Assembly (NCBI GenBank): GCA_030141605.1
Contig: JAQGDQ010000038.1
Span: forward strand, 310,001 to 374,000
DNA from: Tubiluchus corallicola
Lineage: Eukaryota; Priapulida; Priapulimorpha; Priapulimorphida; Tubiluchidae
Reading direction: 5' to 3'
Length of the DNA stretch: 64,000 bases
The translations under genes and the position numbers were made by a program. Positions 4,626-52,400 of this stretch are shown one piece after another; positions within the stretch are counted from its first letter, which is position 1, and every line of letters starts with the position of its first letter. The notes beneath the pieces were generated by a model that saw only the letters and a program-made list of their open reading frames with translations, did not search any database and had not been told where the DNA came from.

Positions 4626-7600
4626 GTGAGGCAATTTCGTCTTAAGACAGTCTCCTTTTTTCTCGCTGAGCATCATACGTAATAAAGTAAACAACCTAAT
4701 TGCTTAATATTTCTGATCGATTTAAGTTACGTTTACGAACAAACCATGTTTTTTAAACTGGATGTTATTACTTTTCCGAAAATCTCAAATTTATTTTAGC
4801 CAGAAACCGTACAGTTTTAGAGAATTGCTTTTCGGGTAAAAGTATTCAGGAAGCGTTTATTATTCCTACCATGAGCAATCGACTGCTTATTCTTAGCTTA
4901 GTCTTTCGTGGATTCGTAGATAAGAATCCACGAGACATTGCTTTGTAATAAATGACTTTGGTTTTGAAAAGTTGAGTTATATATATTACGACAATTTCAT
5001 ATCTCAGAATTACCATGATTGTATTTTATTAAAACTGTTCCAGCTGATCATATACAGATTTAGCACTGTAATTATCCAGTTACGTGTTTGTGTGCTTGTG
5101 CAGGGGCTTATTGTTTTCTATAATACTCAGTGTTACACATATATAATAAAACTGTTGATAGTTGTGACCTGTACGATTATTTCGGAGTAACAGTGTCACT
5201 TGTATAACCACTACACTGCACGTCACGTCACAGTTAAGTACGTGTGATTTGTAAAAATTTAAAAACCCGAAGCGCGGGTTGCGCTGTTATGGTATTCCTT
5301 TGAAATCTGTAATATTATGCTGTTTTAAAGCTAATTAATTTGGCAAGTATGTATTGTTGTAGTAGTAGTAGTAGGGGAAAGTAGATACAGGATCACTTTT
5401 CAAGCACTGTCTATTTGCAGAAGAAACTGCGTTGATAAGTTTCTATTTCGCGGGAAAAAATTATCTCCTCGTTTTCGATTTATTTAAAGGCATCTTTTTT
5501 ATTGTGCGTTTATTCACTTTTTTATTGGTTACTTGCTTTTCGCATTGGGATGGGTGTCCATGGGTCTGTAACACGTAGCTGCCATATACGGTTTAACGAA
5601 GCACGTGAAAAATATTGAAAAGATGCCTGTTATGGGTAATTCTTTTTAGTGCACTTTTAGAGAACGTGTGATTTGGTGTTTAAATATGTCAGTCACGTGT
5701 CAGTTTGTCAAGTGAAACTAATTAAAATTTAAGTTGTCAAAACAGGGTTTTTCCATGACTATAAAGTATGAACAAAAACCTGTAACTAACTAAACTTTTT
5801 TCGGAGAGTGATATTAAAACAAAGCAAACTGGGTTAGTGAGTTAACAAATCGGGTCGTCGGACAACCTCTTCCTGCAGTCCCCCGTCATCAAAACAAACC
5901 GGACCGGTAAGTTGACCAACCGAGTCATCAGGACAACTTTTTTCTGATGACCACTGTAATGAAAGCAAACCGAGCCAGTGAGTCGATTTAGCGGGGCCAT
6001 CAGAACAACCTCTTCCTGCAGTGCACTGTCATCAAAGAAAACCGGTCCAGTGAGCTGACCAATTTGGTCGTCAGAATAACGTCTTCCTGCAAGTCTGCCA
6101 TCATTCTCTCTGCTAAGCTGTTCATCACAGTTGGCTGCTACCAGCCTTGTCTGGAATGAATTCATGAAATAACTGTGTGGACTAAACTCTATGTAAAACT
6201 TCTTAATTGACTGGCTAGCAGCACTTAGCGTCTTTGTTCAAGGCTCACTCGTAAGTTTCAGTATATAGCACATTTGATACTTATTGGTAACCTAAAACAA
6301 GACCTTGTCACCTTGATAGCCTTGTAAGGATTAGTTTTGTTAAGCTGCATGGTAAGTCTAGTAATTCCTTTTATCGTTACTAAGTTATAAATAGTTTTTA
6401 GTCGACAGGGCATTACTGAAAAATGAAAATCACTCATCGGTGTTACCTGGTGTACAGCCTTCAGTGTCCACTATCTATTATTCCGGTTACTATGTTTAGG
6501 CTTCTTTGCTGAGCTAGTGTATTAGGCCAGTGGTTTAGTTTATATAGAAAGGTAGATATCTGTCCGTTCTTTCCGTCTTTTATGCATGCTGTGGCATGCG
6601 CCCAAATGTGGTATATCATAACAACCAACATGGTCCCGGGAAGGCCAAAATGGCTCTTCGGACATTCTTTATAATTATTATAGCCGTCATAAGTGTGCCC
6701 TCGGAACCAGTATGGTCGTAGAAGAATGTAAGGCTTTAAATTGATACAACTTCAACCTCAATTTTCGGCCAGAATGCCCGCCAAAAATAACGCTTGCAGT
6801 TCGGGTGGACACGCTATTCCGCTATAAATCTAATAACGTAGTTTCTCTTTCTCACTTTATTTTTGCAACTTTGCTCTGTACAAGCTATTGGTCAGTTTTT
6901 TCCTGGGACAGAAATACTATGCCGCGCAGAGAAGTGAAGCGCTTGCTAAGTATTAAGGCTACCTACAATTAAACGCCTCTCCCTCTACTCGTACAGCTGT
7001 AGCCCTCATTGGTGATTAGAGTTTGTATAAGAAAGAGATGTGTTGTCATGGGTCATAAACTTAAGCTCAAATAAGTGTCATATGTGAGAAGAATTGTCAT
7101 AAATTATCTCAGATAATTGCTGTGGTGGTGTTTGCATTTAGTTTTATTTTAGTGGTCGATGACCTCTTGCCTTTTTTCTATGTTGAACAGTGATGTCGAA
7201 GAAGTAAGAAAAAGACATCTTAGCGTGTGGAGTTAATAATCCAAGGTAGCCCCAGAACACCGACGTAGGTAGAATAAACAGAAGATTAGTAGCTTTGGTG
7301 CAACTTTTTCGATGCGGGTCTGACATAGCTGGCCTTCATCGTTAGGACGTTGGCCTTCGAAATGGACAATTGCTATGGGTGGCGCCTTTGATGACTTCTT
7401 TTACAGGTGTCTTTTCAGACAAGTAAGATTTCCTATTGTCATTATGTTTTGGCCGTATTAAAGACCTGGCAATTTTGTGATAATTATCATAATTGCAGCG
7501 ACTATTGGTATAGAAACGGGCAATGTCCTGCAACGGGGTTTTCTTAGCTTTTTGTGCTTATTTTGTGCAAATAGAAGTAGAAGCACGTGGCGCATGAAGT

Positions 7601-13600: not shown

Positions 13601-16600
13601 TGGTTTAGTATTGATTTAGTGTTGACAGTATCATTCTCAGTCACCCTGATTGCTGACATTATTATCTTGTTAGCTGTGTTCTGAACTTCTGATTTTGCAA
13701 GCAATGACATTAGTTTGAATGTTTGGAATGGTATTAGCAGGAGCTTGATCATATAGTGATCAATGAATGATTTCCTTAATTTCCCGATAAAATAAAAAAC
13801 TAGCGATAATATTGATTTAAAAATGCTATTTTACATTAGCATGTAGACACGATTAATATGGTCAGTTTTCGTATGCGGCTTTTGTTTGAGTTTTTTGCTT
13901 AAAAGCAGTAACTAATTTGCATTTTAACCATAATTTTTGTTTTAAATGAACGTAGGAAAAGTCAACATTTTCACATAGGGTTCGTATATATATTAATGTA
14001 TGCAGTAGAAATGTATCATTGTTGTAGTGTTTGTGTGATTTTTACGTACTTTTGTTTCTCCTACAAGCCATTTTATTATGCATGCTAATCTACTTGTGCT
14101 GTTTACAGCATGTTCCTCCTTGCTTACAGCAAACTGACGGCGAACACTCAGCAAAAACGTCATCATCGTCGTCGTCATCAACAACAACTCAACAGCCAAA
14201 ATCATCGTCAACAGAAGTGCCAAAGAGACTCCATGTATCGAACATACCATTTAGATTTCGAGATCCAGATCTTAGGGCAATGTTTGGCGTAAGTAATTTA
14301 ATATTGTATTATAGGGTTGGCCGATGTGCTATTCACCTTCATACTTCGGAAGATATCATGTATATTTTATTTTTATATCACAGTAATTAGCATGTTTCTA
14401 GAACTTACATTATTGCTATTATTCAGTAATACTGCATATGCCATGTATTTTCAAGAAAGAAGTATTCTATGCAAACCTCTGCAGTTGAAAATTTGTCTTA
14501 TTTCTATAACATTTTAATTTCTTTGTTGTGTGTGTAATATTCAGATTTTGATTTAGTTGAATTTTAAATTTTTGTTTCGTCTTTATCTGGCTAATTTTGT
14601 TTTTCAGCAATTTGGCCCAATTTTAGATGTTGAAATTATTTTTAATGAAAGAGGTTCTAAGGTAAGTGAAATAAGTTTTATTCATCCCAGCTTCTTTTTT
14701 CCATTAAGTGGTATTAAGATTTACAGTTTTTACCTAATTGAAAATGTTTTATTATTGATACATGATGCTAAAGTCTTTGCCTTTTAAGTTCCTTAGAACT
14801 GCCCTTGGTTTCCGCATTTCATAAAGCTCACAAAAATTCTTCAAGTCAAAAAAACAAAAACCACAAACCAAAACCAGCTGAATTTTCTGAAGACCGCCTT
14901 TGTCTCAGGTTCCAAAAACCCTTCTTGTTTTTCAAATCTCCTTCAAGTGTAGCTGGTTTCGACTTACTTTCTCGCATGCGAGTATTCGAGTAGCTGAATC
15001 CGTCATCTTCAAGAACTTCTATATTGAGAATTCAATAAAACCCGGACGTTGCATTTCTGCCATTTGCGTGTCCTCATCCGTGAAACTAGTCGTGCTTGCA
15101 GAGATGTAGTCTCCATTGAGAAACTTGATTGATTAGTCAGTATAGATTGAGCAAGCTAAAATGCACGCAGTCCTTTCTATGACACCGGGCTGACTAAACA
15201 AATCTCTAATTGGGTGTCCATCATATTTGCTATATTATTTTCCCAGGCTTCAATGTTTTTTTAGGAAATAATTACAGGCAAGGGTGCAACAGAATTGCCC
15301 AAGATTTGCATTCCTATTTACTTTGCAGTGAAACAAAAAGGTGGTAGTATAACCATTCTTTACAATTTTTTGTGATATTGTCCTACCTGAATTAGAATCC
15401 CGTTTGACATCGTGCACTTAGTAATCACTATCGATAAACATGCTAAACTCGGTCAAATTAGTTGTATTGCATTTTTGGTAAAATATTACATTTAACATAG
15501 TTTCTTCAAAATCACATCTAGACATGGAACATACATTTTTCTTGCTAAATTTTATAGCTAACATACAGACATTTGTTTAATCTTCCAAATACCTTTGTGA
15601 AAATATTTACATTTGGTGGTGTTCAGAAGAACTATAACATCAAAAAAGGAGTAGCAGTAATTAATATTTCACTTTTTCACGTCTTTCTGATTGCCCTCAT
15701 ATTTGAGTAAAATTTGTTCAACAATGAGTGTAGATGTCTAAATGGGAATTTTACTGGTCTATGTGAATTATCAATATTGTTGTAACCTATAAAATCACTT
15801 GCAGCAAAAGTGATTTCAGCAGTTTTCAAAACAATTGTTTATTAAAACTAAGCACGAAACATCACTTTTCAAGTGTCTTTATTATTTTGAAAGGAAATCA
15901 AAATTGTCTTGTACCATGCTTTCCTACTGAGGTTACAAAGCTCACAATTATATAATTAGAGCAGCTTCCTCAGCTGTGATGAATAAATGAGTAACCATTA
16001 AGAGATTTTGTAGTCACTACTTAAATGAATTGTTCGATGTTCAATAGTATCAATTATTTTGAAACTGGTTCCCTGTAATTACTGTCTTTTTGATCTAAGC
16101 ACTATATTGTTTGCATCTGCTGTTACACGTTACATTGTCCTTTCCTATTGGTAACATTACACTCTTGTGTGTTTCTTTTATAAAAAGCGAATGACGATTT
16201 CCGTAACTTTGTTCTTTTAAAAATACAGTCGCTTATTTAGGTCATTGACATTATGATATAAAACAGTTTTTGCCATGGACAGTTTATGGACTTGTTTTAG
16301 TACTAAGAGTAACAAAGCAAACACATCTTGTGTGTTCGGAGCTGGTTCTTGGTATATAAATAACTGGATGGAAATTCCAACTCTGCAATGTGCGACCAGT
16401 TTTCGTGATCCTTTGAAGTTTCGCAAGCAATAATGAACCTACTGTTTTTCCAGACGGTAACCAGTTGTGCGAGATGCTAATCTAACGCAAACAAACCTTG
16501 TATAGCAGCAAAGCGAGTTGGTTTGGATTAAATTTGCAAACCAACCTAACCTGTCAAAATTGGGTGTGCTTGCCACAAATTCGTAACAGTAAAAAATGGT

Positions 16601-19600
16601 TTTACTGTTTGAAAAAGGGAAATAAATTTATGAATTGGATCTCTGTATACCTTTTTGTCATGAATTAGTGCATTAATTGTTTTTATGTCCATTATGTGAG
16701 CACAAGTTCATAATTTTAAAGAAAATTTATTCTTACATTTCAGTTTTTTAATGGCATTTTTAAATTCTCCAACCCCGAGCATTTTCCTCTATTGATATTC
16801 AGATAATATTTTTATAACATTTCTGCAGATTGTAAGGGATATAATCTTGAGATCTTACGGGGTTCAGTCGGCACTCACTCGAACTTAACAGGTTAAGTTT
16901 TATATTGGCGATATATTGACAATGTTGATGACAGTGTTGTTGCTAGAAACTAATTTCCTAGTTCTGGGTGCCGTAGTTATATGTGTATACATACTGGCCG
17001 TGCCAGCATGTGAAACTTCACGTGTACAGCATGGTGTGGCAGCACTGGGCATGTGTTCCTGAGCCTCCTTCAGTGGGAGACCGTCCTGTGGTGGTGGAAT
17101 GTTTAGCTATAATTTAATGAACGATTAACTGCTTGTAATATCCTAACACCTCTCTACTTGTAGGCAGCGGGTATTTATGTACTAATTAGGTCTGCTAGCA
17201 CTTTAAAGAACCAACCATAGAAAATTCTTCAGCCAAAACGATTGAATTTAGTTCTCAGTAATCGTCTATTAGCACTACCTTTGTTAATGTGTTTTATCCA
17301 CTAGATAGTTTTCAGCTAGCAGTACTTTGCACATTGCATTGCTAACTGACATGGCTAAAGTTTGTGTGCTAGTGGCCATGTAGTTTAAATCATTAAGATT
17401 AACTTATTTGTAAGTTCAAATTTAATAAGAAGTAGCTAAGCCTTATTTTGACAGTAATTTGTTGAGGAGTGCTTTGATGGATAATGTTTACATACGAGAT
17501 GCATCGCTGAATCTTCCAGTTAAAATCAAGTCAGTATCTTCCATCTAATTATAATTACGTATTTTAGCTAAATTGTGAATGGGTAATGGAGAGGATTATA
17601 ACAGATTATTTGTTTTTGGGCTTTATTTGAGGTTATCTGTCAGCCTTGATCTAAGTTATGTAAGTTTCAAATGATAGCAACTTGCATTAGTAGCAGTTTC
17701 AGGAAGAGAACTGCAATGAATTATGTAGGACAGTGTTTTTGTGATTTGTTATTCTGTTGAATGTCTCTGTTACCTCCATGCTGTATTGTAAAAGATTAGC
17801 AATAAAAAAATCGTTGTTTAGGTGCATTGGAATTGTTAAAAAAGCAAATAATGTGTAATGGCAAATTTGTTTATATAATAGATATTTATAATTTTTGCAG
17901 TATGACAGACATTGCTAAGTCCATTGTTAGTGCTTTTTACTAATGGCTCCATAGTAAGATTAGATAATTGCAAACAGTAGTTTAAATGTTACTTAAGTAT
18001 TGGTTTGCCAAGACAGTAAATTCGCCCAGAATGACATTGTCCAGATTGTTTAATTGAGCGTGGCCATATTTTCACTCTAGTCTTAGCATACAACTGAGTA
18101 CTAGATGTTTCACAATAGTTAGAATAAGTGCTGAAGACTGCTCAATTTGGGAAGGATTCTAATAATACCAGGGAACAATGGGCGGACATATTAACGTGCA
18201 TGGCAGTGAAATCTGAACACGTTTCTGCCTGGTGTCAAGATGGCCACCGTCGCTCTTCCCTGTTGCATTGCATTGACGACTTGATGCCACTGCACGATCA
18301 TTAAAGCATGTTCTCTTGTTTATTTGTGCATGCAGGGTTTTGGATTTGTAACGTTCCAAAATAGTGCGGATGCGGATGCAGCACGTGAGAAACTGCACAC
18401 TACTATGGTAGAGGGAAGAAAGATTGAGGTGCATGTCTATCTAATGAAGTGGCAGACTTTGGGGAGGTCCTATAAATGGAAGTCGCATCTAGGGTTATTC
18501 TGAATGTGCAATAGGAAACAGAAGAATGGCCTTCGTTACGACTTCTTTTTGTGCCTCTCAAAGCTGTTTTGTCTTATCTATATTATATTATATATCAGTG
18601 TGGCACACTGCAACTAATGCCAATCATGTTTGTTATGACGGCAGTTCCCCTTGCCATCTGTTTATTGCAGTTGATTTTCGGTTTTAGCTGTCGAATTTGC
18701 CATATTTTAGTGGCTTGCTAATAGTGTTTCAGTTCTTGCTTCTCGCTGTACTGTTATACTGAGCATTTGCCTGAATTTACTTGTTATATTAGTGATTGTC
18801 TGGAGCAGGTTTTTATGGAAGTTCTTATTCTACTGGCACGTTGTAACACTGCTAACCTAAACCATGCAAGACATACAGATAGCACTTGGAACTGCAGTTG
18901 GTGCTAAGAAATGTCCATCCTCTGAAATGGTGTTTGTCGTGTGGTGGCTTCTGAGTTATTTATGTAGCTGTTTATAATTAACCAACTTGTCCTTCCTGAG
19001 CTGTGGTGTGCTTAGTAGAAGTAGGCATAATGTCCTTAATACATGTTTGTTTCTGTTTTAGTTGCTAAAAAGTGGAGATAATGTTGGTTGGGGCTCTGTT
19101 TGTGGTTTTCGCACAATATTGCTAAAGATGTTCTTTCTGTCAGGGTTAAAAAGTTTTGCATTCTATTCTTAGCAGTTCTTTAAAAATTACTGAGCTTTAC
19201 TAATTTATCATATTTATCATTTTTTATTTTTGTTAATTAATTAAAAGAAATTCAAGCTCTTCATCCATTATATTTACACAAAACTAAATCAATAATAACA
19301 ATATATTGAAATTATAATCGCTATTTGCTAATGTGTTTATCCAGTAGGAGCACCAGTGGTCCATATTTTGTTTTTTGCTGCAGTGCTAGATCTGGGCTGT
19401 CACCAGTTTCTGTACAACTTAAGTCTTAAAGCCTACTGAGTGTCAAGCAAAATATTCAACAAACACATTGAATTAGCAAGTTTACACCCACTAATTATGC
19501 TGGTGAATTTTTTTGCTTAATTACAATGTAAGTGCTTGGCCATTGGTCAATGCTGTGCAATTGTGAAATGACAACTGTTATCTCATTCAATTCTTGTTGT

Positions 19601-22600
19601 TCCTGTAAATAGAATAAGGATTATTTGTACTTGTTGAATGTGAGTCTTAAAATTAGTGGCCCTCTGTTTTTTTTGTAACATGTTTTCATATCTAATCTAC
19701 TACTTTGATTCACTAAAATAGATAAGCTGTTAGATAAACTAGTCAAACTTTAATTTAAAGCTTCTATTTGCTGTGATTCTGTCACATTTTTTTGACATTT
19801 TTCTTTGATACTTCCTTTCTTCAGGCTACATGAACTAATGTAATATCCACGTGAATAAAGCCTTTTGAAATGGATAATCAGAACCCACCGGGTAGCAAAT
19901 TTATCTCTTGCTGCTTAGCTGTTGCCATGGAAACTTATGAATATAAATGTCTTCATCAATGACTGAGTAGGGCTTTCTGAATGCGAGGAAGTTATACGCT
20001 AGCTACTGCATCCTCATGATGCAACTTTTAACAGAAATTTGATGTAGTGCTTCTTGTTAAAATTTTATGAAACACTTTCATTGAAGCTTTAAAAAGCTTT
20101 AACCTTTACATAAGGTTTTTAGTAATTAAAAGTAAAATAAAAATGTATCAAGAATTAGCAGCGGCTACTCTCTTGCAAAATTTTTAAATGTGTAGTGTTT
20201 TGTAAGAAGGTGTGTAAGTAGGCCTATTTGAGTACTGTTGTAAAACACGCTCTCTGAAAACAAATAAAAAAGAACACGCCCTTTTTAAGTATGTATTTCT
20301 AAAAAAAATTGATTTGTCATTTTTGCATATTTGTTCATGATATATTCTATTTGCAAGCTTTGTATAGCCCTATGAGAGTACTACTAACTGTTTGTCTACT
20401 GTTTAGCATAGCAGTTTTCACAATTAAATTCACAAAAACTGTTTTTTTTTGAAATTTTAAGTTTTAAAGAGGTTGGTTATGTTCATAGTGTGAGAGGTGT
20501 GAGAGAGAGGGTTGTTTATTTACACGTCATTTTAATATCTTAGCAGAAGTTTTTATAATGCTATTATATCTGTACTTTCTTTAGCTTTTTAGAAATTTTT
20601 ACTAATGTTACAGTTCTTTTTTGCAAAGTTTGAATGGATGCTGGTTATCCAGAAAATTTTTGTCCTGTATTGCACTGAGTGAGGTGCTGTGTTCCTGCTT
20701 GTCAGTGATTGGTTGACTTGATCAAACCTTGACTTGCTATCGATCGATATGATTTTTTCCTACTTTGTGATTAGCTGGCTGCTTGCATTTATGGAATGTA
20801 TTGCACCAAGGATTGACATTTCTTACACTTGTTTGTACCTCTAGTTAGTTTTTAGATGGTGAAGGTACTTACCGTTTGTACCGCTAGGGTCACTTCTGCA
20901 GTGTTGGTATTGAGGCATGCTTAACATACTGGCTTGGCCTTTCAACCTTAGCTTTTCAATTCACGACATCTGACAGACGGGTGTGTGTGTTCCAGTCTGT
21001 GTTGTTGGACATGGCTATATACCAACACTGAGCAAAAGTGTCATCTGGTGATAGATTGTGATATTATTCTGACAAGGATGTGCGCTTATTTCATTATGCT
21101 ATGAAACGTGATCATGGGTCAGGATCACTTTACCGAGGTAAGGTACTTAGCGCTCAGCCATTTTGGAAGAATTGATCCAGATTTTCAGACCATGACTATG
21201 AATTTTTCAATTACAGTATCTTAAGTGTATATATAACTACATAAAACATAAGTAGGCTTATTTTAATTTTAAATTAAGTATTTGTTGGATTGCATTTTTA
21301 TCTGGGTCTATTCTGCTTTGCTATCAGTGGTACCTGGCCTTTATTATCAACAAACAAAAAAACCTTTTTAGGATGTACACATGATACTGATAAAAACCTT
21401 CCACTGCTCTTATTAGTTTAAACTATGCAAAACCATGATAAATTAGAAATAAACATTATCATGAAAGACTTCAATATTTTTGTATAAAAAAAGCATTTGA
21501 AAGACTCACAGTGGAACAAACAAAAATGTAAGATGAATGAAACATAATGTGGCGTTTGCAATCTCAGTTTTACGGGCGATTCGTGAAAGTTCAAGTACCA
21601 CTGGTGTAATAAACCAGGACATCATTTTTGCGTGAATTTTCTTGGCAAATGAGTTTTCAATGAAACTTGAAACAAAATTATGTTTCTCGTGTTATTGCTT
21701 TCATGTCTCCAGTGTCTGTAGCCATTGCTGTGTTAGCGTATAATTTGGCTAGCTCTTGTGATTTTAATAATGTTATGAAATTGCAATAAGGTCTTGTCAA
21801 TCAACAAAATGGCTTTTAATTTTTGAACATCTCTTGACTTTTTTGCCTGACTTTTATACAAAAATGATGTCTTTGTGTACAAATAAATTAATTAGTCTCC
21901 ACTGTAGTTCATTTTAAAAGTTATTGGCAAGTACATTATTGAACTTTACAGTAAACTAATTAAATTTCATGTTATCAAATCTTTAAAATATTGTTTCATT
22001 TTAAAAGATCATTTGCAACTTGGGTGTCCAACGAAATATTTTTGTTATTAAATACATAACATAACCTATTGTTAAATGTAAATATCATTTTTGGCCAGGC
22101 TTAGTCTAATGAACATTGGTGTCATTTTTAGGTAAACAATGCCACGGCTCGAAGTCAAACGAAAAAGACGCCGCAGGCTTTAGCTAATGGTATTCAGTTA
22201 TTATACATATGAGATCACTTAGTGCAAAAGGAGAAATCGATCAGCACTTATAAATTTCTAAAAATGCATTTATTGTGATCTAATTGAAAAAAAATAAACC
22301 TTTTCTAAAACTAGTACTTAAAGACATATTATAGGAAAAGCATATTATAAGAGTATTATAATAATTTAGAATTGGGATACAGCTATTTTGTAGTTATTTT
22401 GAAATAGAGATTGCTGTTTGGATTGGTTGATGGTATTTTATGATATATTATTCTAATTGTTACTTGAAACCCTCTTTTCTATTTGAGCTGCTATTGCTGT
22501 CATCATTGTGAATACATGCAAGTCAAGCATTATCGTAAAACTAAATGAAAACTGTTATATTTTAGCTGTAGTATTGAAGGGTGCTGCTATCACGAGAAAT

Positions 22601-25600
22601 CGAGTTGCGGCAGCAGCTGCTGCTGCAGCGGCAGCAAGAGGAGCGTATACGGCAGCCGCACTTCGAGGTCCAACTCCTATAGGAGCTGCGGCTCCGACAC
22701 CGGCTCTTCCTGGATATGTGCCGTGAGTGTCAAATTAAAAATAGAAGTTACCTGTGCCTGCTGTATTAAAAAAATTGAGATGTTATTTTATACATTAATA
22801 TGACCTGACGAGTGTACAAATATCCTCCTGGTCTGTAGGTTTGTTCATTCAGTTACATTTTCCACTGTCTCTTGTGTACTCACAAAAGCTGAAAATATGT
22901 TGTTACATAATAAGTTGATGTAGGTATATAAGCCATGATGTCATCTGTTCACAATGAGTGTTACTACTTACGTCTGCCTTAAAAGAAAGCATGTTCCAAA
23001 GAGAGTTGTAATAAGGAGCTTATCTAAATTTTACTAGTTTACCGCCAAATAGAACTGTGCCCCCAAGTGTGCAAGTTACAATAATCCACTTTGAACTTTC
23101 AATCAACTTCTGGTCAAGTGCATTAATTGTGAAGCTAAAATTGTTATGTAAAAATATTTTCTAAGTAAGTGAGTGAGTGAGTAAGTAAAAGTAAGTTTTC
23201 TTATCAGCTGTTTGTGTTAAAATAATTTTAGTATGTCAGTCTTTTGTTTTATGTATGTAATACAGATAATTGATGTATAATCATCTTTGTTAATCGGAAA
23301 TAAGAAATTGATCAGCAAGAATAAAAAATGAAATGTTTGTTCTGTCCCAATACCTATGAGTGTCCATATATGTGTAGTACATAATGTTGCCTGCCTGCAA
23401 ATTGTGTTATAAAACTGTCATCTGCAAAGGCAGGCCTGTGGATTTACATTCATGAATTCCAAGCATTTCTCTGCATAATGAAAGGTGAACTAAATTAGTT
23501 TGCCAGCTGTGAAGTACATAATCACAGTTTATGATTTTGTGGTTCACGGGGGAAGGTTTAGTGGCTAGCCACCGTAAGGCACGTCTTTGGAATGTGTAAG
23601 TTATTATAGTGCAGTTTTTGGTATTTATAGTGTGACAGTCTCACAGATTAATTGCATAATTTACATATCTGTTGCTTACTTTACATAGCAAAGCAAATGC
23701 TATTCTGTAATTAGTGATTTGTTTCTTGCATTGCAGGGCAGCATTATATCAGGATCCATTTCTAGCCTATGCTGAACGTTATCAGGTATTTTCTTTACTA
23801 ACAAATTTTAATTTATGTTTCACCTCCATTCACCAAAAAGTATTTCTCTTTGCCAGCTAAAATTATAATAAATGAAAAATCTTGATCCTGAAATTTGTAA
23901 AGGATTGCATGTGCCATGCAGACTACACATTTTATTTATTTATTTTTTGCTAATTCTATGTTTCTTACTGCCACTAACTAGAATAATGTAACGGAGTAGT
24001 TGTTTTAGGTGCGTCAATCTTTGTTGATACAATGATAGCTTTTATTACTCTAACCTGATTTGGGTTTGTTTTGAGCTGCATGATTTTGCTTTTGGTGCTT
24101 TATTGTTAATTGTTTTGATGAAAATTAAATGAGATGGTCTTGATGGTTTCGAAAGTTTTTTAGGTAGACCTCTTTTTTGTACCATCAACAGGCTGAATGA
24201 GCTATACTGTGACTTCACATTTTATGTCATTATACATGTGCTGGTAATAATCTATTTTAAATAACAAAATTTTAGTGATATATACAGAATATTTTACGTA
24301 ATTAGAAAAAGCCTGTGTGACACGTTCCCTAAACATTTGGTCCTTTTTTATACATTTGCTGTCATTCAACACGAGTTATTGGCACTTGTGCACTTTCAAG
24401 TTTTACATGGCTCGTAAAACGTGCTTATGCATAGTGTTAATCGATAATTGTTTTTCTTATCACCTGTGCAAATTAGTAATTGTTAATACAATTAATCTGA
24501 GATCACTATTTTTGTAATAATATTGATGAAATATGTAAGTTGCCCTCAATTCTGTGGCTGCTGTTGGTGACACTTAACATGTTATCAACGTTCCACAAGA
24601 CTGTCTCATTTAAACAGTCCAGTTCCGTTTCAGTTGAATTTGTTATTGTTAACTTAATTCTATTTTAGGCTGCTGCCGCTGCATCAAAGTTTCCTATTGT
24701 CTCACTAGGCGGCGATACCGCTTTAATGGGCAAAGGCTTAATGAATTTACCTGGGGTACTAAACTCTTGTGTTCTGTAGATATTGTGTAGAGAACTAATT
24801 ATTACAAAAGTATTGTGCTGGCTTTGATGTATTACATCGAAAATTTGATAGAAACTTTTCAGACTTGAAATTCTAATTTGGCTTATGAGTAGATTAAAAA
24901 TTGTAGTGTGTATTAATTAGTTCTCTTTGTGTGTGTGTGGATATTTCAAAAGGCCAGTGGGTAGCTTATCATGGATTGAACAGTAAAATAGTTCGTGATA
25001 GCTATGACACTGCTTTAAATTAACATTTCTATCATTTTACTTGTGCAAGGATGTAGAAGGTTATCTCTGTCTTTTCCTTAACAACTACAACTAGCAATTC
25101 TTCTATTTCTATAATTTGACTGCATGATTTTTTTAATGAAAAATTTGTATTTTTGGCATTTTTGTGTTTCTGCAAATGTCGAGTTTATCAGAGTTTAAAC
25201 TTTGCTTTAGTACGTATAGACAAAATAATATTAGTTAATTATTTAGCTTGATTGAATCTTGCCATTAGCACTTGTCTTGAGATAATGTTTGCATGATCGA
25301 TTATAGTTTCTGTGTTCGTGCCTCAAACAGATTCTGTCCGTTCTGTGGACAATTGATGTTTGTCAGGCTTTGTTTCAACTTAAATGCTTTTTAACACATT
25401 ATGTTTTCTTGTTTTTGTTATCAAATTGGAATGCATGTCACTTTTACAGAAATTTATACTCTAAAGTAGGAAACTTATTTTATTTTAAATGATCCTAAAT
25501 CAGCTATTATAAGAACCATGCATTGTTCTCATTTTTTTCTATAATTATTTTCCAGTAAACTTCGGCAAGCATTATTTTAGAAACTCTTACACCAACATGT

Positions 25601-26738
25601 TCTGCCAGTTCAATTTTTGGTCTTGGTTTCAGTCCTTTCCAGTGTTAAAATATAGCTATAATCTCTGTAGTATATGTTAGCTAATGCTTAATTTAATACT
25701 CTATAATTGTTTGTATTATAGCCAGCTTATGCACAATATGCAGCAGCTGCTGCTGCAGCTAGGCCGTACGCAACTGTTGCAGCGCAACCTCCTGTATCTG
25801 GAGCTTATGCTGTCGGGTAAGTAAATCTGACACTACATTTAACTTTTCTCTGTCTGTAATACAGAGACGATTCTTAACAAGAGTTGGAATGATAAATATA
25901 AACTCTCACAGTAGAGAAGCACAAGTCATAATATTTCAGTTTACCACCTTGGACCATCTGTTTTTTTATTTATTTGTCTATATATATATGTGTATCCCAT
26001 TTTCTGATAATTTTTAAATATTTCAAATTGATAATCTGTTGTGAGAATGTCGTCTGTACAGATTATGACTTTGTCATCCAGTAGCCTATTGGGAAAGTGG
26101 TGAACTGACGGGTGAGAGAATAGCTGAGCAGTTAAGGTGTGCAACTGAAGTTTTCGTGTGCCATACTGTCCCCTGCTGTTTACTAAAGGAGGGTAAATGT
26201 AAATCCAAGGGCAAGGACACTGTTCACATTTTCAAGGTGATTGTCCTTGACAGTGAGATGATAATTGGTTTTGACCCTGCCACATGTGTAGAGTACCCTC
26301 TTGTTGGGTGCTGGAGCAGGCTTACAGAGTACGGAATTGTGTAAAAAATTATGAAGGTGATGAATTGCTCACTGGTGATAACATCATTGGGGTTGTATTT
26401 TCTGTTTTTGCTGATGTTATATAATAGTTAGTTTTCATTCTGTCATCTCCCCTCTTTACATTTAGGTATGCTGCTGATCCCTATTTACAAGCAGCAGGAG
26501 GGATAGGACCGATGCCGACATACGGGGTAAGAGTTAACTTTTTATTTTAATGTTTCAGTTTTTTCTGCTTTATAGAAAATAACACACTGCTGTGTAGATT
26601 GGCCTTTTAAGTAAATGCTTTCATTTGTTGTTATTTGCTTTGAACATGGCAGGTTGGGTTTGCAATGCATTTACCTTTAATTATTTTTTGTAGGCTGCTG
26701 TGTACAGAGGCGCTTACGGCAGGTTTGCTCCGTATTAG
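4461..26738 (+). CDS. Rbfox: Rbfox (Fox-1 family) RNA-binding splicing regulator, gene-level CDS span
   Basis: Nuclear splicing factor whose single RRM binds UGCAUG in pre-mRNA and switches exon inclusion. Common coding exons: 13190-13399, 14130-14288, 14608-14661, 18336-18428, 22132-22189, 22566-22722, 23737-23785, 24669-24755, 25722-25816, 26466-26526, 26694-26738 (TAG 26736-26738). All junctions are GT-AG and keep phase. With the 4461 first exon the protein is about 410 residues, within the usual Fox-1 range. The RRM reads [44 protein letters not shown] and [14 protein letters not shown], near-identical to vertebrate RBFOX with the same exon cuts. N-terminal to it lie Gln/Thr-rich and Ser-rich segments. 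C-terminal to it lie Ala-rich low-complexity exons ending [11 protein letters not shown], matching the RBFOX C-terminus. The span starts at the 4461 candidate first exon; three other first exons are listed separately. Confidence 0.95.
5826..6110. repeat. Minisatellite, about 4 copies of a ~71-bp unit
   Basis: Diverged units start near 5826, 5897, 5968 and 6040, sharing AACCGG-CCAGTGAGTTGACC, CATCAGAACAACCTCTTCC, TGCAGT and TGTCATCAAA. The array is GC-richer than its surroundings. It produces a spurious 107-codon minus-strand frame. It lies in a large Rbfox 5' intron. Confidence 0.7.
9225..9242 (+). CDS. Candidate alternative first coding exon of Rbfox (exon 1d, MLTMPM)
   Basis: ATG at 9225 followed by five codons (MLTMPM) and a strong donor, ATG|GTAAGCGAAG, at 9243; phase 0 with the 13190 exon, giving MLTMPM-HMVQTQ. 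The 300 bases upstream are less AT-rich than their surroundings and contain an inverted CCAAT box (ATTGG, 9026-9030), as expected of a promoter and 5' UTR. It is the closest candidate to the common body, and vertebrate RBFOX genes also use very short first coding exons. Confidence 0.5.
13190..13399 (+). CDS. Rbfox: Rbfox common exon, Gln/Thr-rich N-terminal region
   Basis: Seventy codons in phase 0 at both ends: acceptor TATTTTCAG|CAC and donor ACA|GTAGGT. It encodes a hydrophilic, probably disordered segment starting [14 protein letters not shown] and ending SSTVETQT. In vertebrate RBFOX the matching region (MAQPY...TQTDG) precedes the RRM, and the junction here rebuilds the same ETQT-QTDG motif. 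Confidence 0.85.
14130..14288 (+). CDS. Rbfox: Rbfox exon carrying Ser-rich linker and start of RRM
   Basis: Fifty-three codons, phase 0 at both ends, donor GGC|GTAAGT. It begins QTDGEHSAK, has a seven-Ser run and TTTQQP, then [19 protein letters not shown] and AMFG, which is RRM beta1/alpha1 with the RNP2 motif (LHVSNI). A second in-frame acceptor 21 nt upstream (exon start 14109) would add HVPPCLQ. Confidence 0.93.
14608..14661 (+). CDS. Rbfox: Rbfox RRM exon (54 nt)
   Basis: Eighteen codons, [18 protein letters not shown], phase 0, acceptor TTTTTCAG and donor AAG|GTAAGT. This is the RRM beta2/beta3 region; it has the same length and boundaries as the 54-nt vertebrate RBFOX exon and differs from the vertebrate peptide I recall at one residue (P for K). 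Confidence 0.95.
14662..18335 (+). other. Rbfox intron before the RNP1 exon
   Basis: About 3.7 kb with no gene. Rbfox-type sites cluster near its 3' end: TGCATG at 18197, GCATG at 18306 and TGCATG at 18327. Confidence 0.6.
18336..18428 (+). CDS. Rbfox: Rbfox RRM exon with RNP1 (93 nt), probable autoregulated cassette exon
   Basis: Thirty-one codons, phase 0 at both ends. It encodes [19 protein letters not shown] through VEGRKIE, including RNP1 (GFGFVTF). Skipping it keeps frame but removes the RNA-binding core. The acceptor is TGCATGCAG|GGT and the donor GAG|GTGCATGTC, so a UGCAUG overlaps each splice site (18327-18332 and 18430-18435). In mammals the homologous 93-nt exon is repressed by Rbfox through GCAUG in the upstream intron, giving a dominant-negative protein. 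Confidence 0.96.
18429..22131 (+). other. Rbfox intron after the RNP1 exon
   Basis: About 3.7 kb of AT-rich sequence. It begins with the UGCAUG-containing donor. GTTGCCATGGAAAC, close to an RFX X-box, is at 19921-19934. I see no exon or repeat family. Confidence 0.6.
22132..22722 (+). CDS. Rbfox: Rbfox exons after the RRM: VNNATAR exon and Ala-rich exon
   Basis: Two exons. 22132-22189 encodes [19 protein letters not shown] plus one base, equivalent to the vertebrate VNNATARVMTNKK exon that holds nuclear-localisation residues. 22566-22722 runs in phase as [14 protein letters not shown], ten Ala, [16 protein letters not shown] and [10 protein letters not shown], matching the RGAHLRG...AAAPPPPIPAYG region of RBFOX. 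The second exon has two in-frame acceptors six bases apart (exon starts 22566 or 22572). Donor CC|GTGAGT. Confidence 0.88.
23163..23196 (+). repeat. Short (GTRA)n microsatellite
   Basis: A run of GTAAGTGAGTGAGTGAGTAAGT-type tetramers in the Rbfox intron after the Ala-rich exon. The unit resembles a 5' splice site (GTAAGT/GTGAGT), so it could act as a decoy donor cluster. Confidence 0.6.
23737..26738 (+). CDS. Rbfox: Rbfox C-terminal Tyr/Ala-rich exons
   Basis: Five exons: 23737-23785 ([16 protein letters not shown]), 24669-24755 ([20 protein letters not shown] then GKGLMNLPG), 25722-25816 (PAYAQY, seven Ala, [19 protein letters not shown]), 26466-26526 ([12 protein letters not shown] then IGPMPTYG) and 26694-26738 ([14 protein letters not shown], stop TAG). 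Exons 24669-24755 and 25722-25816 have no close vertebrate match and look like plausible cassette exons (the first is phase 0 at both ends). This C-terminal domain drives splicing activation and assembly in the family. Confidence 0.9.
26111..26345 (+). mobile_element. Possible degenerate tRNA-derived SINE in the last Rbfox introns
   Basis: AGAATAGCTGAGCAGTTAAG resembles an A-box, followed by a tRNA-like but degraded B-box region (GTGTGCCATACTGTCCCC). About 230 bases differ in texture from the flanking AT-rich intron. It overlaps a chance 62-codon frame. Confidence 0.35.
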
Positions 26739-41016: not shown

Positions 41017-41059
41017 ATAGCTGGGTGTGGTAGACTCAGGACTGCAAGCCAGCAACATG
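41017..41059 (+). CDS. RPL38: RPL38 5' UTR exon ending in the start codon
   Basis: After acceptor TTGCATTGCAG, a 40-base leader ends AGCAACATG, and the donor GTAATA follows directly (41060). The AUG at 41057-41059 is the only coding triplet here. The acceptor implies a further untranslated exon, or a trans-spliced leader, upstream; I cannot locate it. The ATG and donor are duplicated 32 bases downstream. Confidence 0.85.
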
Positions 41060-41119
41060 GTAATATATTAGTTTCTCTGATCTTTTTCATGGTAATATAT
41101 TAGTTTCTCTGATCTTTTT
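41056..41119 (+). repeat. Tandem 32-bp duplication of RPL38 start codon and 5' splice site
   Basis: Two identical 32-base units (41056-41087 and 41088-41119), each beginning CATGGTAATATATTAG and ending TCTGATCTTTTT. Each carries ATG|GTAATA, so both the start codon and the intron donor are present twice. Confidence 0.95.
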
Positions 41120-42975
41120 CAACTGTTGTAAAACTTTAAATTACACAATATTTGGATCAAAAGTTATTGACGAAGTAGTTTATTTCTAAATGGTCAGCCT
41201 AATTAAAATATTGCAACAATCCACATTCTTTTGGCAATATGAGATATTCAGAGATATTACTATATACAATTAGGTTACATTACATTGACTACAATACGGA
41301 TAACAAAGTAGCATGTTAGGAGATTTATTTTGAGAAAGTAGCATGTTAAAGACTATGTTAAATTCTCATTAAGCTAAATAAGCCTTGTCAATATATTGGC
41401 GAATTTTTATTTTTCAGCCGAGGCAGATAATGGAAATTAAAGATTTCTTGTTAACAGCAAGACGAAAAGATGCAAAATGTAAGAATATTTTGTTGTTGGT
41501 AATCTTCATGTTCTGTAGTCTTAAGGACAATTATAATTTGCTTGTGTTTTATATGCAGATCAGCTGGTTTTTCGAATTATATTAAGCAAGCAGCAACATG
41601 TATTCTAGACACAATATTTGTATTGAACTAGAAGTTGCTCTTTTAGCATTGAGCCTACTTTTTAGAATAGTATGATTCGTTTACAAACTTAGTAACATAT
41701 AAATTGCAGTTAAGCCGGCCACAAAAAATTGTTTCTGTCTTACCTCACGATCTCAAAGGATGTCAGTTGGGAGGAAGAAAAAAGTTTTTAATTAAAAGCT
41801 TTATGAATGTTTAAAGCTGAATCGTGGCAATCGGTATTCAAAATTAGTTGAAATCAAAGTTTGTTTATTTCCCACTGGCTAGCAGTAATGTTTTAAATTT
41901 TTTCAATGCACATTTTTTTACCCTTTGTTTTTAGGTTTGCATTACCAAATTATCGTATCACCAATTTTTGTATAGTCTCTTTTTTGTATCATGCACGTGT
42001 GTGTTCTGATAGTTATGGTAAAAGTGGCAACACTACTCAGCTATTAATACACCACTTTGGCAAAAAATTTGATACTTTTAGCCTCCAATACAATGAGCAT
42101 CATACAAAATGGCAACCCTGACTGAAAGTTAGCCGTGGAAAACATGGCCGTGTTTTGCATTTTACGTTCTAAATTAAAAAATACGCTTTTATATGACTGT
42201 GTTAAGTAAGTATATGAATGTACAAAAAAATTATAAAATTTCCGGCCGGGTGAGCCATAAAAAACCGGAAACAGAAGTATTTTTATTGTCGACCTTAATT
42301 AATTGTAAGATGTTTTTTCTTGAAAACTAATTAAAATATTGCACTTTATTAGCTGTAAAGATTAAGAAGAACAGAGAGGATGTAAAGTTCAAACTTCGCT
42401 GCAGCAAATATCTTTACACGTTGGTTATCCAGGATCGGGAAAAAGCAGAAAAGTTAAAACAGTCTCTTCCACCAGGTTAGCCTGTTTTTAAGGAATGTTA
42501 TTCAAAATATGGACCAAACTGAAACTTGCTGTTTTTGAAGGCCCAAATGATATGTTTTTACAGTTGTACCAGAGTGACCTGTGCATACACATTAAGCATT
42601 TTCTATTTAATTATTACAAAACTGTAACTATCAAAATGATAATTTAGTAAATTTCTTTTCATTAATGAAATTTTGCAGATAGTACAATTATATAATGCAT
42701 ATTTCTATTGAGATATGCATGTAAAGTAATTTGTAGTTTTTTTTTTCAAAACATTACAACCACAGTGGTGTTCATGTATTTCTGAGACTACACTTTGTAG
42801 ATGTTCTGTATAATTTGTGTGATTTGGAACATGCAGTATAGATGTACTTGTAATTGGTGTAGTATAGAACCAGACAAAAGAACTCTAGTAGTAAAAGTTT
42901 TATTACGTGCAGTGTGACTTCAGTATGTGTGTTCTTTATTTTTTTTTAGGTTTACAAGTTAAAGAACTAAAGTAA
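41057..42975 (+). CDS. RPL38: Large-subunit ribosomal protein eL38
   Basis: Cytosolic 60S ribosomal protein. Coding exons 41057-41059 (ATG), 41418-41478, 42353-42475 and 42950-42975 (stop TAA 42973-42975), all GT-AG and in phase. They give exactly 70 residues, the length of human RPL38: [70 protein letters not shown]. Only a few conservative changes from the vertebrate protein are seen, so the gene is intact and not a retrocopy. A poly(A) signal AATAAA lies at 43010-43015, giving a short 3' UTR as is usual for ribosomal-protein genes. Confidence 0.97.
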
Positions 42976-49400: not shown

Positions 49401-52400
49401 GTTTAGTTGTTTCTATGTCTAATTCCACTTTCTTGTTATTGTAAAAAACTAACCAATGATGACTAGTGACTAAAGAATAATAAGATGATAAGTAAATGAA
49501 ATGGAAAAAGTGTTATCGGCAGTTAGTTCTTGGCGAGTCGCTGTTAATGTGTTACTCATTTGGATGTTGTCACTGCAAGTGTTAGCTGAAAATATCCGTG
49601 TAAAGCGAAAGATGTTACCAGTTAACGACTGGGATATGATCTGGCCTGCAAGCGAACCGATACCATATATGATTGGAGAAACTGGTTTGTACTCACTGTT
49701 TCATATAAAATGTTTGCATTGTAGTTCTCTTGTTACAGAGTAGGATGATGTTTAGATAATCAACAAGAAATTGATTGCAACAACGTTTGCTTAATTTGTA
49801 TCATTACTTGCTAATCTACCATAATTCAAAAAAAAAATGTGTATTTAATTTTTAAGAATAATTATTTGAAATTTTATTGTCAAATCATTAAAATTCAAAC
49901 TTTACCATTCAAAGTTATTTTATTGGATTAACCAACTTACTATTGTACTAGTATATGTTACAAAATGAAATGTTATTGCAGTGCCAAAATACCTTGTCAA
50001 GGCAATACACGAAGGTATTGCATACTGGACTAACAACACTTGTATGCGATTTGAAGAAGTTACTTGCCTAAAAGGCATTGATGACTATATTGGCTTTACC
50101 ACTTTCAACTGGTCAAAAGCAATACCGGCTCCTGTACAGGCAGTTACTAGCCACTTGGGTATGCGTAATATGGGTGAGAATCAAATACAGCTGAGCATGC
50201 AGTCCGAGTACTTACACAATCTTGCGCTGGCATCGGCCATCGTTAGCCACGAACTTGGTCATGTGATGGGCATGCATCATGAGATGTCACGCGTGGATGT
50301 GGATGACAGTGTTTGTGTAAACATCGGCGATCGCAAAAGCTGGGAGCCCGCATTTGCAACGTACAAAACCAACATTTTGGGAGTTCCATATGACTTGGGA
50401 TCAACAATGCATTATGGAAATAATGAGCAGTACAAAAATCAGTTTCAAATACTGACACGAGATCCCCTCATGGAAACGTCCATAGGAAGAGTGTGGCAAG
50501 GAGTAAAACTGTCCTTTTATGATGTATTTATGCTAAATTTGGCCTTTTGTAACAAATCGTGTCTGGGTGGGTTACAGACAAATTCTTGCAAACACGGCGG
50601 CTTTAAAAACCCACAAAACTGCAGAACATGTATTTGTGCCGAAGGTTTCACTGGTGAACGTTGTGAAAGCATGCTAAGTTATGGGGCTGAAGATGATACC
50701 CATATTATACACATAGAGCCTGGCAAAAGTGGTAAACTAACTCAGGCATTTACATCCACAACTGATAAAATTAGATCCTCGTGGCTGATAACAACAACAC
50801 CTGGTGCAGTTATAGGTATACAGGTAATATTTATAAGCTTCAATGTGACAGAGGATAGTGAAAGGGTAGTAGAATACATATCAAGACACAGGATATGTCT
50901 AGATTGGTTAGAAGTGAAATATAAAGACATTGCTGGAGCAGGTCCGCAATTCTGCAGTTATCCAAATCCTGGAGGAAATGTAACTGTTGATTTTATGCCT
51001 CCTTTGTATCCACCATTAGATTATCCATGGATGTGGTCAAACAGCAAGGAAGTACTTCTGCTTTACAATCAAAATGAGAACAGAGAAGGTTCGTTTACCA
51101 TAAAGTATGAAGCCAGACACGAAAAAGATGTAATTCAGCCAAAAAAGCTGAAAATTGCAAAACTTGCTACTGATATAGTATGCAGCTTTGTAAAATTAAT
51201 GAAGTGACTGATATTTTGCAAATTTTTCATGTGTAAATAGTACGATGAAATGACAAAAAGCAGAATTCATTGTTGTTAGATTTATAGCAGAACTTAAATG
51301 CACAGGGAAGACTAATATATATATATATATATAAACAAGATTTCGTATGTAAACAGTATTTTTTGTAATAGTGAATAGTACTACGTAATAGCAAATAATA
51401 GTTTAACATACATTACGAAAATGTTAAGAACTTAAAAGCAAGTTAACTAACAAGAGAAGTCTAAACAAATTCGCATTTATGTATTTCGACAATCAGTCAC
51501 CAGCTGTGAGAAAATTGTCATGTTGTTTAGATGAGGTGGTATTTTGTTGTAAGTCTGTAGATTGTTAGCATATGTATTTGAAAGCGTGGGTGCATGTATG
51601 ATTAAAATAAAGCTAACTCATTCTGGTCAGACTGTCACAAACTGTATATCAATGGGAATTCAACAAGAATCCAAAGAACATAAATTTCCCCTTGCTCTGT
51701 CTGTTGCATATCTGGTAAGAATAAAATCTAATTTATACTAGAGATAGGTGCATGATGTATGTCATTAAGATTTTGACTCCCACATAACTAGCATTCTAAC
51801 AGCCGCAAAGGGAATATTTTAAGAAAAAGAAAACTATAGGTGTGCTTTACATATTAATCTCTGTTAATATGGACAGCACCACTGTTCACTTATTTAGCCT
51901 AGTCCACAAAGTCCATGTGGTTTTCCTGCTAGGTTTCAATTAATGTGCCTCCTAACTTTGGCGATAAAGCCTCGTCATATAGGCCAGTCAGAATAGCATT
52001 TCACAAAGGAAATCCTCTGCATATGGACAGCGGAGTGGTTAGAATGTGGTATCATTTAAAACAAAGCATTAGATTCAGGCCTGTAGAAACCATACTAGTC
52101 GTCAAATTGGCAAATCACAATGCTGTGCTGCTATAAATATAATTGCAAAGTAACTGAAATGGTAAATCGCTAGTCAGCTGCTTTAAGTTATTCATCACAG
52201 GCATGCAGCTTTTTAATATGCTGAACATGATGATTGCATCTACGCAAAAACTAACACACAAGACGGAAATAACAACATACATAAGTGCATACATATTTCT
52301 GAAATAAGTACTAAACGAAACTTGACAACAGATGCATAGACATTAGGCAAACTATCTAGCATAAGTGTACAATGCAATTCACTCTGAACTCACAAAATGG

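What the first reader, a model, noticed from the sequence alone, without database searches (positions are those of the whole stretch)
18197..18435. UGCAUG embedded in both splice sites of the Rbfox RNP1 exon
The 93-nt exon encoding GFGFVTF is bounded by TGCATGCAG at the acceptor (motif 18327-18332) and by a GTGCATGT donor (motif 18430-18435), with another TGCATG at 18197 and a GCATG at 18306. Mammalian Rbfox proteins repress the homologous exon through upstream GCAUG sites and make a dominant-negative protein. Here the factor's own site overlaps both splice sites, so binding could block U2AF and U1 directly. Skipping is in frame and deletes RNP1.
Basis: partly seen in the sequence, partly recalled or inferred. 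Interest (0 to 1): 0.85.

Follow-up and report, generated by a model that had tools for sequence, protein, structure and literature searches.

The report
Rbfox self-sites flanking its own exon
An invertebrate gene for the splicing protein Rbfox carries the protein's own binding sites on both splice sites of the exon that lets it bind RNA, and a sister gene in the same genome has kept the same layout; this looks like the known Rbfox self-regulation switch seen again, not a new mechanism.

Summary
Exon 18336-18428 (93 nt, phase 0/0, RNP1 half of an Rbfox RRM) has TGCATG at -9..-4 of its acceptor and +2..+7 of its donor. TGCATG is at chance density in the window, but this placement at both splice sites has a simulated chance of about 5e-5. 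A degenerate pattern of the exon's start matches two places in the genome: this exon and one in a second Rbfox gene on contig C1874. That exon has TGCATG at -27 and +4, plus TGCACG at exactly -9..-4, although adjoining introns are only 26/60 and 19/60 identical. Of 20 other mapped splice sites of the two genes, 0 have TGCATG or TGCACG. GCACG is a high-affinity Rbfox site (PMC9911399) that works like GCAUG in worms (PMC7787662). Most likely Rbfox represses its own RRM exon and skipping gives an in-frame, probably dominant-negative protein. That loop is known in mammals, and the exon in Drosophila (PMC3126832). New member of a known kind; skipping itself is untested here.

The parts
14130..14288 (+). 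Rbfox exon with the first part of the RRM (ends ..[23 protein letters not shown])
   Evidence: AG/GT borders, nucleotide match to paralog, RRM match to Rbfox1
14608..14661 (+). 54-nt Rbfox exon [18 protein letters not shown]; donor AAG|GTAAGT
18197..18202 (+). TGCATG 139 nt upstream of the exon; no TGCATG counterpart in paralog
18306..18310 (+). GCATG (AGCATG) at -30; paralog has TGCATG at -27
18327..18332 (+). TGCATG at -9..-4 of the acceptor (TGCATGCAG|G); paralog has TGCACG at the same offset
18336..18428 (+). 93-nt RRM exon encoding RNP1 (GFGFVTF), phase 0/0; candidate self-repressed cassette exon
   Evidence: RRM match to Rbfox1
18430..18435 (+). TGCATG at +2..+7 of the donor (GAG|GTGCATG); paralog has TGCATG at +4..+9
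22132..22189 (+). next Rbfox exon ([19 protein letters not shown]..), 58 nt as in the paralog, in frame after either upstream exon
22566..22722 (+). Rbfox exon, alanine-rich C-terminal part (boundaries from consensus splice sites only; not mapped in paralog)
23737..23785 (+). Rbfox exon ..[13 protein letters not shown]; counterpart in paralog
26694..26738 (+). last coding exon [14 protein letters not shown] and stop
   Evidence: counterpart in paralog

Best explanation
This is the RRM exon of an invertebrate Rbfox gene, and its splice sites carry a self-repression element. When active Rbfox protein is abundant it binds UGCAUG at the acceptor (-9, with help from GCAUG near -30) and at the donor, keeps the splicing machinery (SF1/U2AF/U2 and U1) off the exon, and the exon is skipped. 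Skipping is in frame and removes RNP1, giving a protein that cannot bind RNA properly and competes with the full protein, so activity is held in bounds. Shown: the sequence layout, the frame, and its retention in a second Rbfox gene. Inferred: binding, skipping, steric block, dominant-negative effect, and cross-regulation between the two genes.
For: The protein is Rbfox: the six best PDB matches are Rbfox1, RBM9, A2BP1 and ASD-1 entries, E 4e-47 to 1e-34. Exon length (31 residues, 93 nt) and in-frame skipping match the mammalian RRM exon in held passages. The placement has a joint simulated chance of about 5e-5 in the window gene and 4e-5 in the paralog. The paralogous exon keeps TGCATG at -27 and +4 and TGCACG at -9 while 60 nt of adjoining intron are 26/60 and 19/60 identical; all six blastn blocks shared by the loci contain coding exons and their edges, one running 33 bases into an intron. 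TGCATG lies at 4 of 4 splice sites of the two 93-nt exons and 0 of 20 others (Fisher 9.4e-5). GCACG is in RbFox's high-affinity class and a 5' U favours it (PMC9911399 passages); GCACG and GCAUG are interchangeable in C. elegans xol-1 in vivo (PMC7787662 passages).
Against: No RNA data: no skipped transcript seen. The two genes share descent, so their agreement is not two independent events and the Fisher value overstates the case. Rbfox binding downstream of an exon usually promotes inclusion (PMC5577181), so the donor site could help rather than repress. Passages of two Drosophila Rbfox1 papers (PMC5778076; PMC8742874) say nothing of this loop. No orthologues in other animals could be read; pattern scans of viral and prokaryotic collections gave 0 and 1 (bacterial) matches.
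Confidence: 0.78

Rival explanations
1. Chance: hexamers that happen to fall at the splice sites of a constitutive exon.
For: TGCATG is at chance density across the window; donor and acceptor letters partly overlap the motif.
Against: Joint simulated chance about 5e-5 for this gene alone; the sister gene keeps the layout despite diverged introns; 0 of 20 other splice sites have it.
Confidence: 0.05
2. The sites mainly promote inclusion: Rbfox at the donor stabilises U1, so the exon is self-activated, a positive loop.
For: Rbfox bound downstream of an exon generally favours inclusion (PMC5577181).
Against: Here the site covers the U1 pairing region itself and the acceptor also carries sites; the homologous exon of Rbfox2 is repressed by Rbfox3 (PMC3126832).
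Confidence: 0.08
3. RNA structure: the near-palindromic motifs on the two sides of the exon pair with each other and hide the splice sites, with or without Rbfox.
For: In the paralog's predicted minimum-energy fold the -9 TGCACG pairs base for base with the donor stretch holding TGCATG; in the window gene the centroid fold pairs the -30 motif with the donor motif.
Against: Neither fold is better than shuffles (z 0.55 and -0.72); the window's minimum-energy fold does not use this pairing; the paired partners differ between the genes.
Confidence: 0.06
4. The sites act through another protein (for example RBM24/SUP-12-type factors at GUGUG), with Rbfox secondary.
For: The paralog donor reads GUGUGCAUG, which contains GUGUG (the SUP-12 preference is recalled).
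Against: GUGUG is not at the window gene's donor; the only 6-mer shared by the near flanks of both exons on both sides is TGCATG.
Confidence: 0.03

Closest known systems
Mammalian Rbfox1/2/3 93-nt RRM exon autoregulation (Damianov and Black 2010, not held; PMC3126832, passages)
   Same: Same exon, same length, in-frame loss of the RNP1 half of the RRM; Rbfox3 represses Rbfox2 exon 6; dominant-negative product. From memory of the 2010 abstract: Fox elements overlap the splice sites there too.
   Different: Invertebrate gene; exact offsets of the sites in mammals could not be compared because neither that paper nor a mammalian genome is held; no splicing data here.
Drosophila Rbfox1/A2BP1 equivalent exon
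   Same: A held paper states that an equivalent alternatively spliced exon exists in the fly homologue (PMC3126832); flanking Fox sites there are recalled from the 2010 abstract.
   Different: Fly sequence not available here; the animal of the window not identified.
C. elegans FOX-1 repression of xol-1 intron VI (PMC7787662, passages)
   Same: Several GCAUG and GCACG sites together regulate splicing; the two motifs are interchangeable.
   Different: Target is another gene and the outcome is intron retention or an alternative acceptor, not skipping of an RRM exon.

Membership tests
Rbfox (Fox-1) family | Single RRM of Rbfox type with RNP1 GFGFVTF | tested here: met
   six best PDB hits are Rbfox1, RBM9, A2BP1, ASD-1; Pfam RRM_1
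Rbfox (Fox-1) family | C-terminal end of Rbfox type (..YRGxYxRFAPY stop; motif recalled) | tested here: met
   [14 protein letters not shown] stop in window, AVYRGAYNRFAPY stop in paralog
Rbfox (Fox-1) family | Binding to (U)GCAUG | not testable with these tools
   inferred from near-identical RRM
Self-repressed 93-nt Rbfox RRM exon | 93-nt exon whose skipping keeps the frame | tested here: met
Self-repressed 93-nt Rbfox RRM exon | Rbfox sites at or overlapping the exon's splice sites | tested here: met
   both Rbfox genes found in the genome
Self-repressed 93-nt Rbfox RRM exon | Skipped transcript exists and rises with Rbfox level | not testable with these tools
   no RNA data held
Self-repressed 93-nt Rbfox RRM exon | Skipped protein is dominant negative | not testable with these tools
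   stated for mammals in PMC3126832 and PMC11380049 passages
Self-repressed 93-nt Rbfox RRM exon | Conservation of the sites in other species | tested here: inconclusive
   no orthologous animal DNA in reach; paralog only

The most novel reading that the evidence does not exclude
The UGCAYG pair at both splice sites of the Rbfox RRM exon is one ancestral element, retained by purifying selection across animals and through gene duplication, so that in this animal each of two Rbfox proteins represses the RRM exons of both genes and a shared pool of dominant-negative products sets total Rbfox activity. The -9 site is held in place as UGCAUG in one gene and UGCACG in the other, which would mean selection on binding rather than on letters.
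Probability: 0.35. Interest if true: 0.5.

Novelty: new member of a known kind. Interest (0 to 1): 0.3.

Why it matters
It extends a known splicing feedback loop to another invertebrate and to a duplicated gene pair, and gives a compact, testable case of binding-site retention (UGCAUG against UGCACG at one fixed offset) inside splice sites. It does not add a new mechanism.

Tried and rejected
Structure across the exon as the main mechanism: motif-to-motif pairing appears in the paralog's minimum-energy fold and the window gene's centroid, but neither sequence folds better than shuffles. Weak donor as a mark of regulation: dropped after scoring all 11 mapped donors, since several others score as low or lower (matrix from memory). 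Looking for orthologues in viral and prokaryotic collections: 0 matches in viral contigs; the 1 match in genome contigs is a bacterial record that I did not examine. Naming the animal: 0 COX1 matches in the assembly; mollusc and arthropod hemocyanin and annelid linker families gave 0 matches, but nothing rang in the controls either, so these say nothing firm. Rfam at gathering threshold and tRNA search of the window: 0. Literature on this exon outside vertebrates and flies: the nine searches listed none that I recognised; for most listed papers I saw titles and abstract starts only, and most subscription papers are not in the library.

Rows dropped: the pseudo-donor rows of the last exons are left out of the 20; the paralog's alanine exon and both genes' exons upstream of the RRM were not mapped and are not counted; one search had the paralog's first exon end one base short, corrected. 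The donor window was -5..+35 (TGCATG) and -5..+20 (TGCAYG). One search counts of 32 of 62900 and 18 of 14400 frames with TGCATG on both flanks include the true places and overlapping frames, so I did not use them as probabilities; in the same of 200000 random quadruples shared some 6-mer at all four flanks and 0 shared TGCATG.

Full report
Observation. The window lies in a 343.5-Mb genome at contig C266:310001-374000. The exon is 18336-18428, 93 nt, [31 protein letters not shown], with AG and GT borders. It sits between a 54-nt exon ending at 14661 and an exon starting at 22132, and joining those two keeps the reading frame while removing RNP1.

Gene. The spliced RRM matches, in order, PDB entries of Rbfox1 (4zka, E 4e-47), RBM9, A2BP1 and worm ASD-1. 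The coding 3' end in the window reads [14 protein letters not shown] and stop. It is an Rbfox gene.

Chance. TGCATG occurs 54 times on both strands of the window against 52.9 expected, so there is no general enrichment. A first-order Markov simulation puts TGCATG in the last 40 intron bases in 1.4% of cases and in GAG plus the first 12 donor bases in 0.36%, jointly about 5e-5.

A second Rbfox gene. A protein search of the genome shows exons of the same type on contig C1874, minus strand, and a degenerate DNA pattern of the exon's start matches 2 places in the genome, these two exons (withheld or missing stretches could hide others). The second exon is also 93 nt, 69 of 93 bases identical, while 60 bases of intron on each side are 26 and 19 of 60 identical without gaps. 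It has TGCATG at -27..-22 and at +4..+9, the only two sense-strand TGCATG in the 5,001 bases first read; 7 more lie in the 10,000 bases downstream. At -9..-4, the offset where the window gene has TGCATG, it has TGCACG; the two acceptors share TTTGTGCA.G.AG. The 4 splice sites of the two 93-nt exons all have TGCATG within 40 nt, and 0 of 20 other mapped splice sites have TGCATG or TGCACG (Fisher 9.4e-5, an overstatement because the two genes share descent). One other acceptor (exon 14130) has a GCATG at -22.

Why TGCACG counts. In a survey of all 16,384 variants of a binding site, the small high-affinity class of RbFox consists of variants with GCAUG or GCACG, and a 5' U raises affinity for GCACG over a 5' G (PMC9911399, passages). 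In C. elegans, FOX-1 uses both; converting all five sites of xol-1 intron VI to either one leaves regulation working, while one site is not enough for full regulation (PMC7787662, passages). So the -9 position remains a plausible site even where a letter changed.

Mechanism. Most likely Rbfox binds these sites in its own pre-mRNA and the exon is skipped. Passages of PMC3126832 say that Rbfox3 represses Rbfox2 exon 6, that an equivalent alternative exon is present in mammalian Rbfox1 and Rbfox3 and in the Drosophila homologue, and that the products can act as dominant negatives; PMC6884704 (passage) says the same of Fox proteins in general; PMC11380049 passages say that the exon encodes 31 of 73 RRM residues and the strand with RNP1. 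The site positions fit a block of branch-site/U2AF recognition and of U1, but that step is inference. Donor weakness is not evidence: the two 93-nt donors score 0.77 and 2.84 on a remembered human-like matrix, but several other donors of these genes score as low or lower, for example -1.4 at 22189. Pairing between motifs as RNA structure is visible in the paralog's minimum-energy fold (-9 site with donor) and in the window gene's centroid (-30 site with donor), but not in the window's minimum-energy fold, and neither sequence folds better than its shuffles.

Against known work. Damianov and Black 2010 (RNA 16:405) is not held. From memory, its abstract says that Fox binding elements overlap the splice sites of this exon in Fox-1 and Fox-2 and that the Drosophila exon has flanking Fox sites. 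What is added here is another invertebrate and a duplicated gene pair with the layout retained. Passages of two Drosophila Rbfox1 papers did not mention the loop (PMC5778076; PMC8742874).

Limits. No RNA, binding or cross-species data were available; the skipped transcript, the block and the dominant-negative effect are all untested in this animal.

Noticed in passing
49969-51204: Astacin-type metalloprotease: Pfam Astacin matches this open frame at E 1.9e-22; a cysteine-rich stretch after it looks EGF-like by eye, but Pfam gave no second family. An adjacent frame at 49492-49740 gave no Pfam match.
   Followed up: partly
5862-6091: Tandem repeat of 71-base units, 3.2 copies, 69% matches.
   Followed up: no
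41056-41121: Tandem array of a 32-base unit, 2.1 copies, 100% matches.
   Followed up: no
L007 (G000:C1874:1498500-1503500, minus strand), donor of the paralogous RRM exon: The donor reads GUGUGCAUG, a GUGUG overlapping UGCAUG, like the paired Fox and SUP-12 sites recalled from worm egl-15.
   Followed up: no
14101-14130: Two possible acceptors 21 bases apart (after 14108 and after 14129) before the first RRM exon, with a GCATG beginning at 14108; only the second looks shared with the paralog.
   Followed up: no
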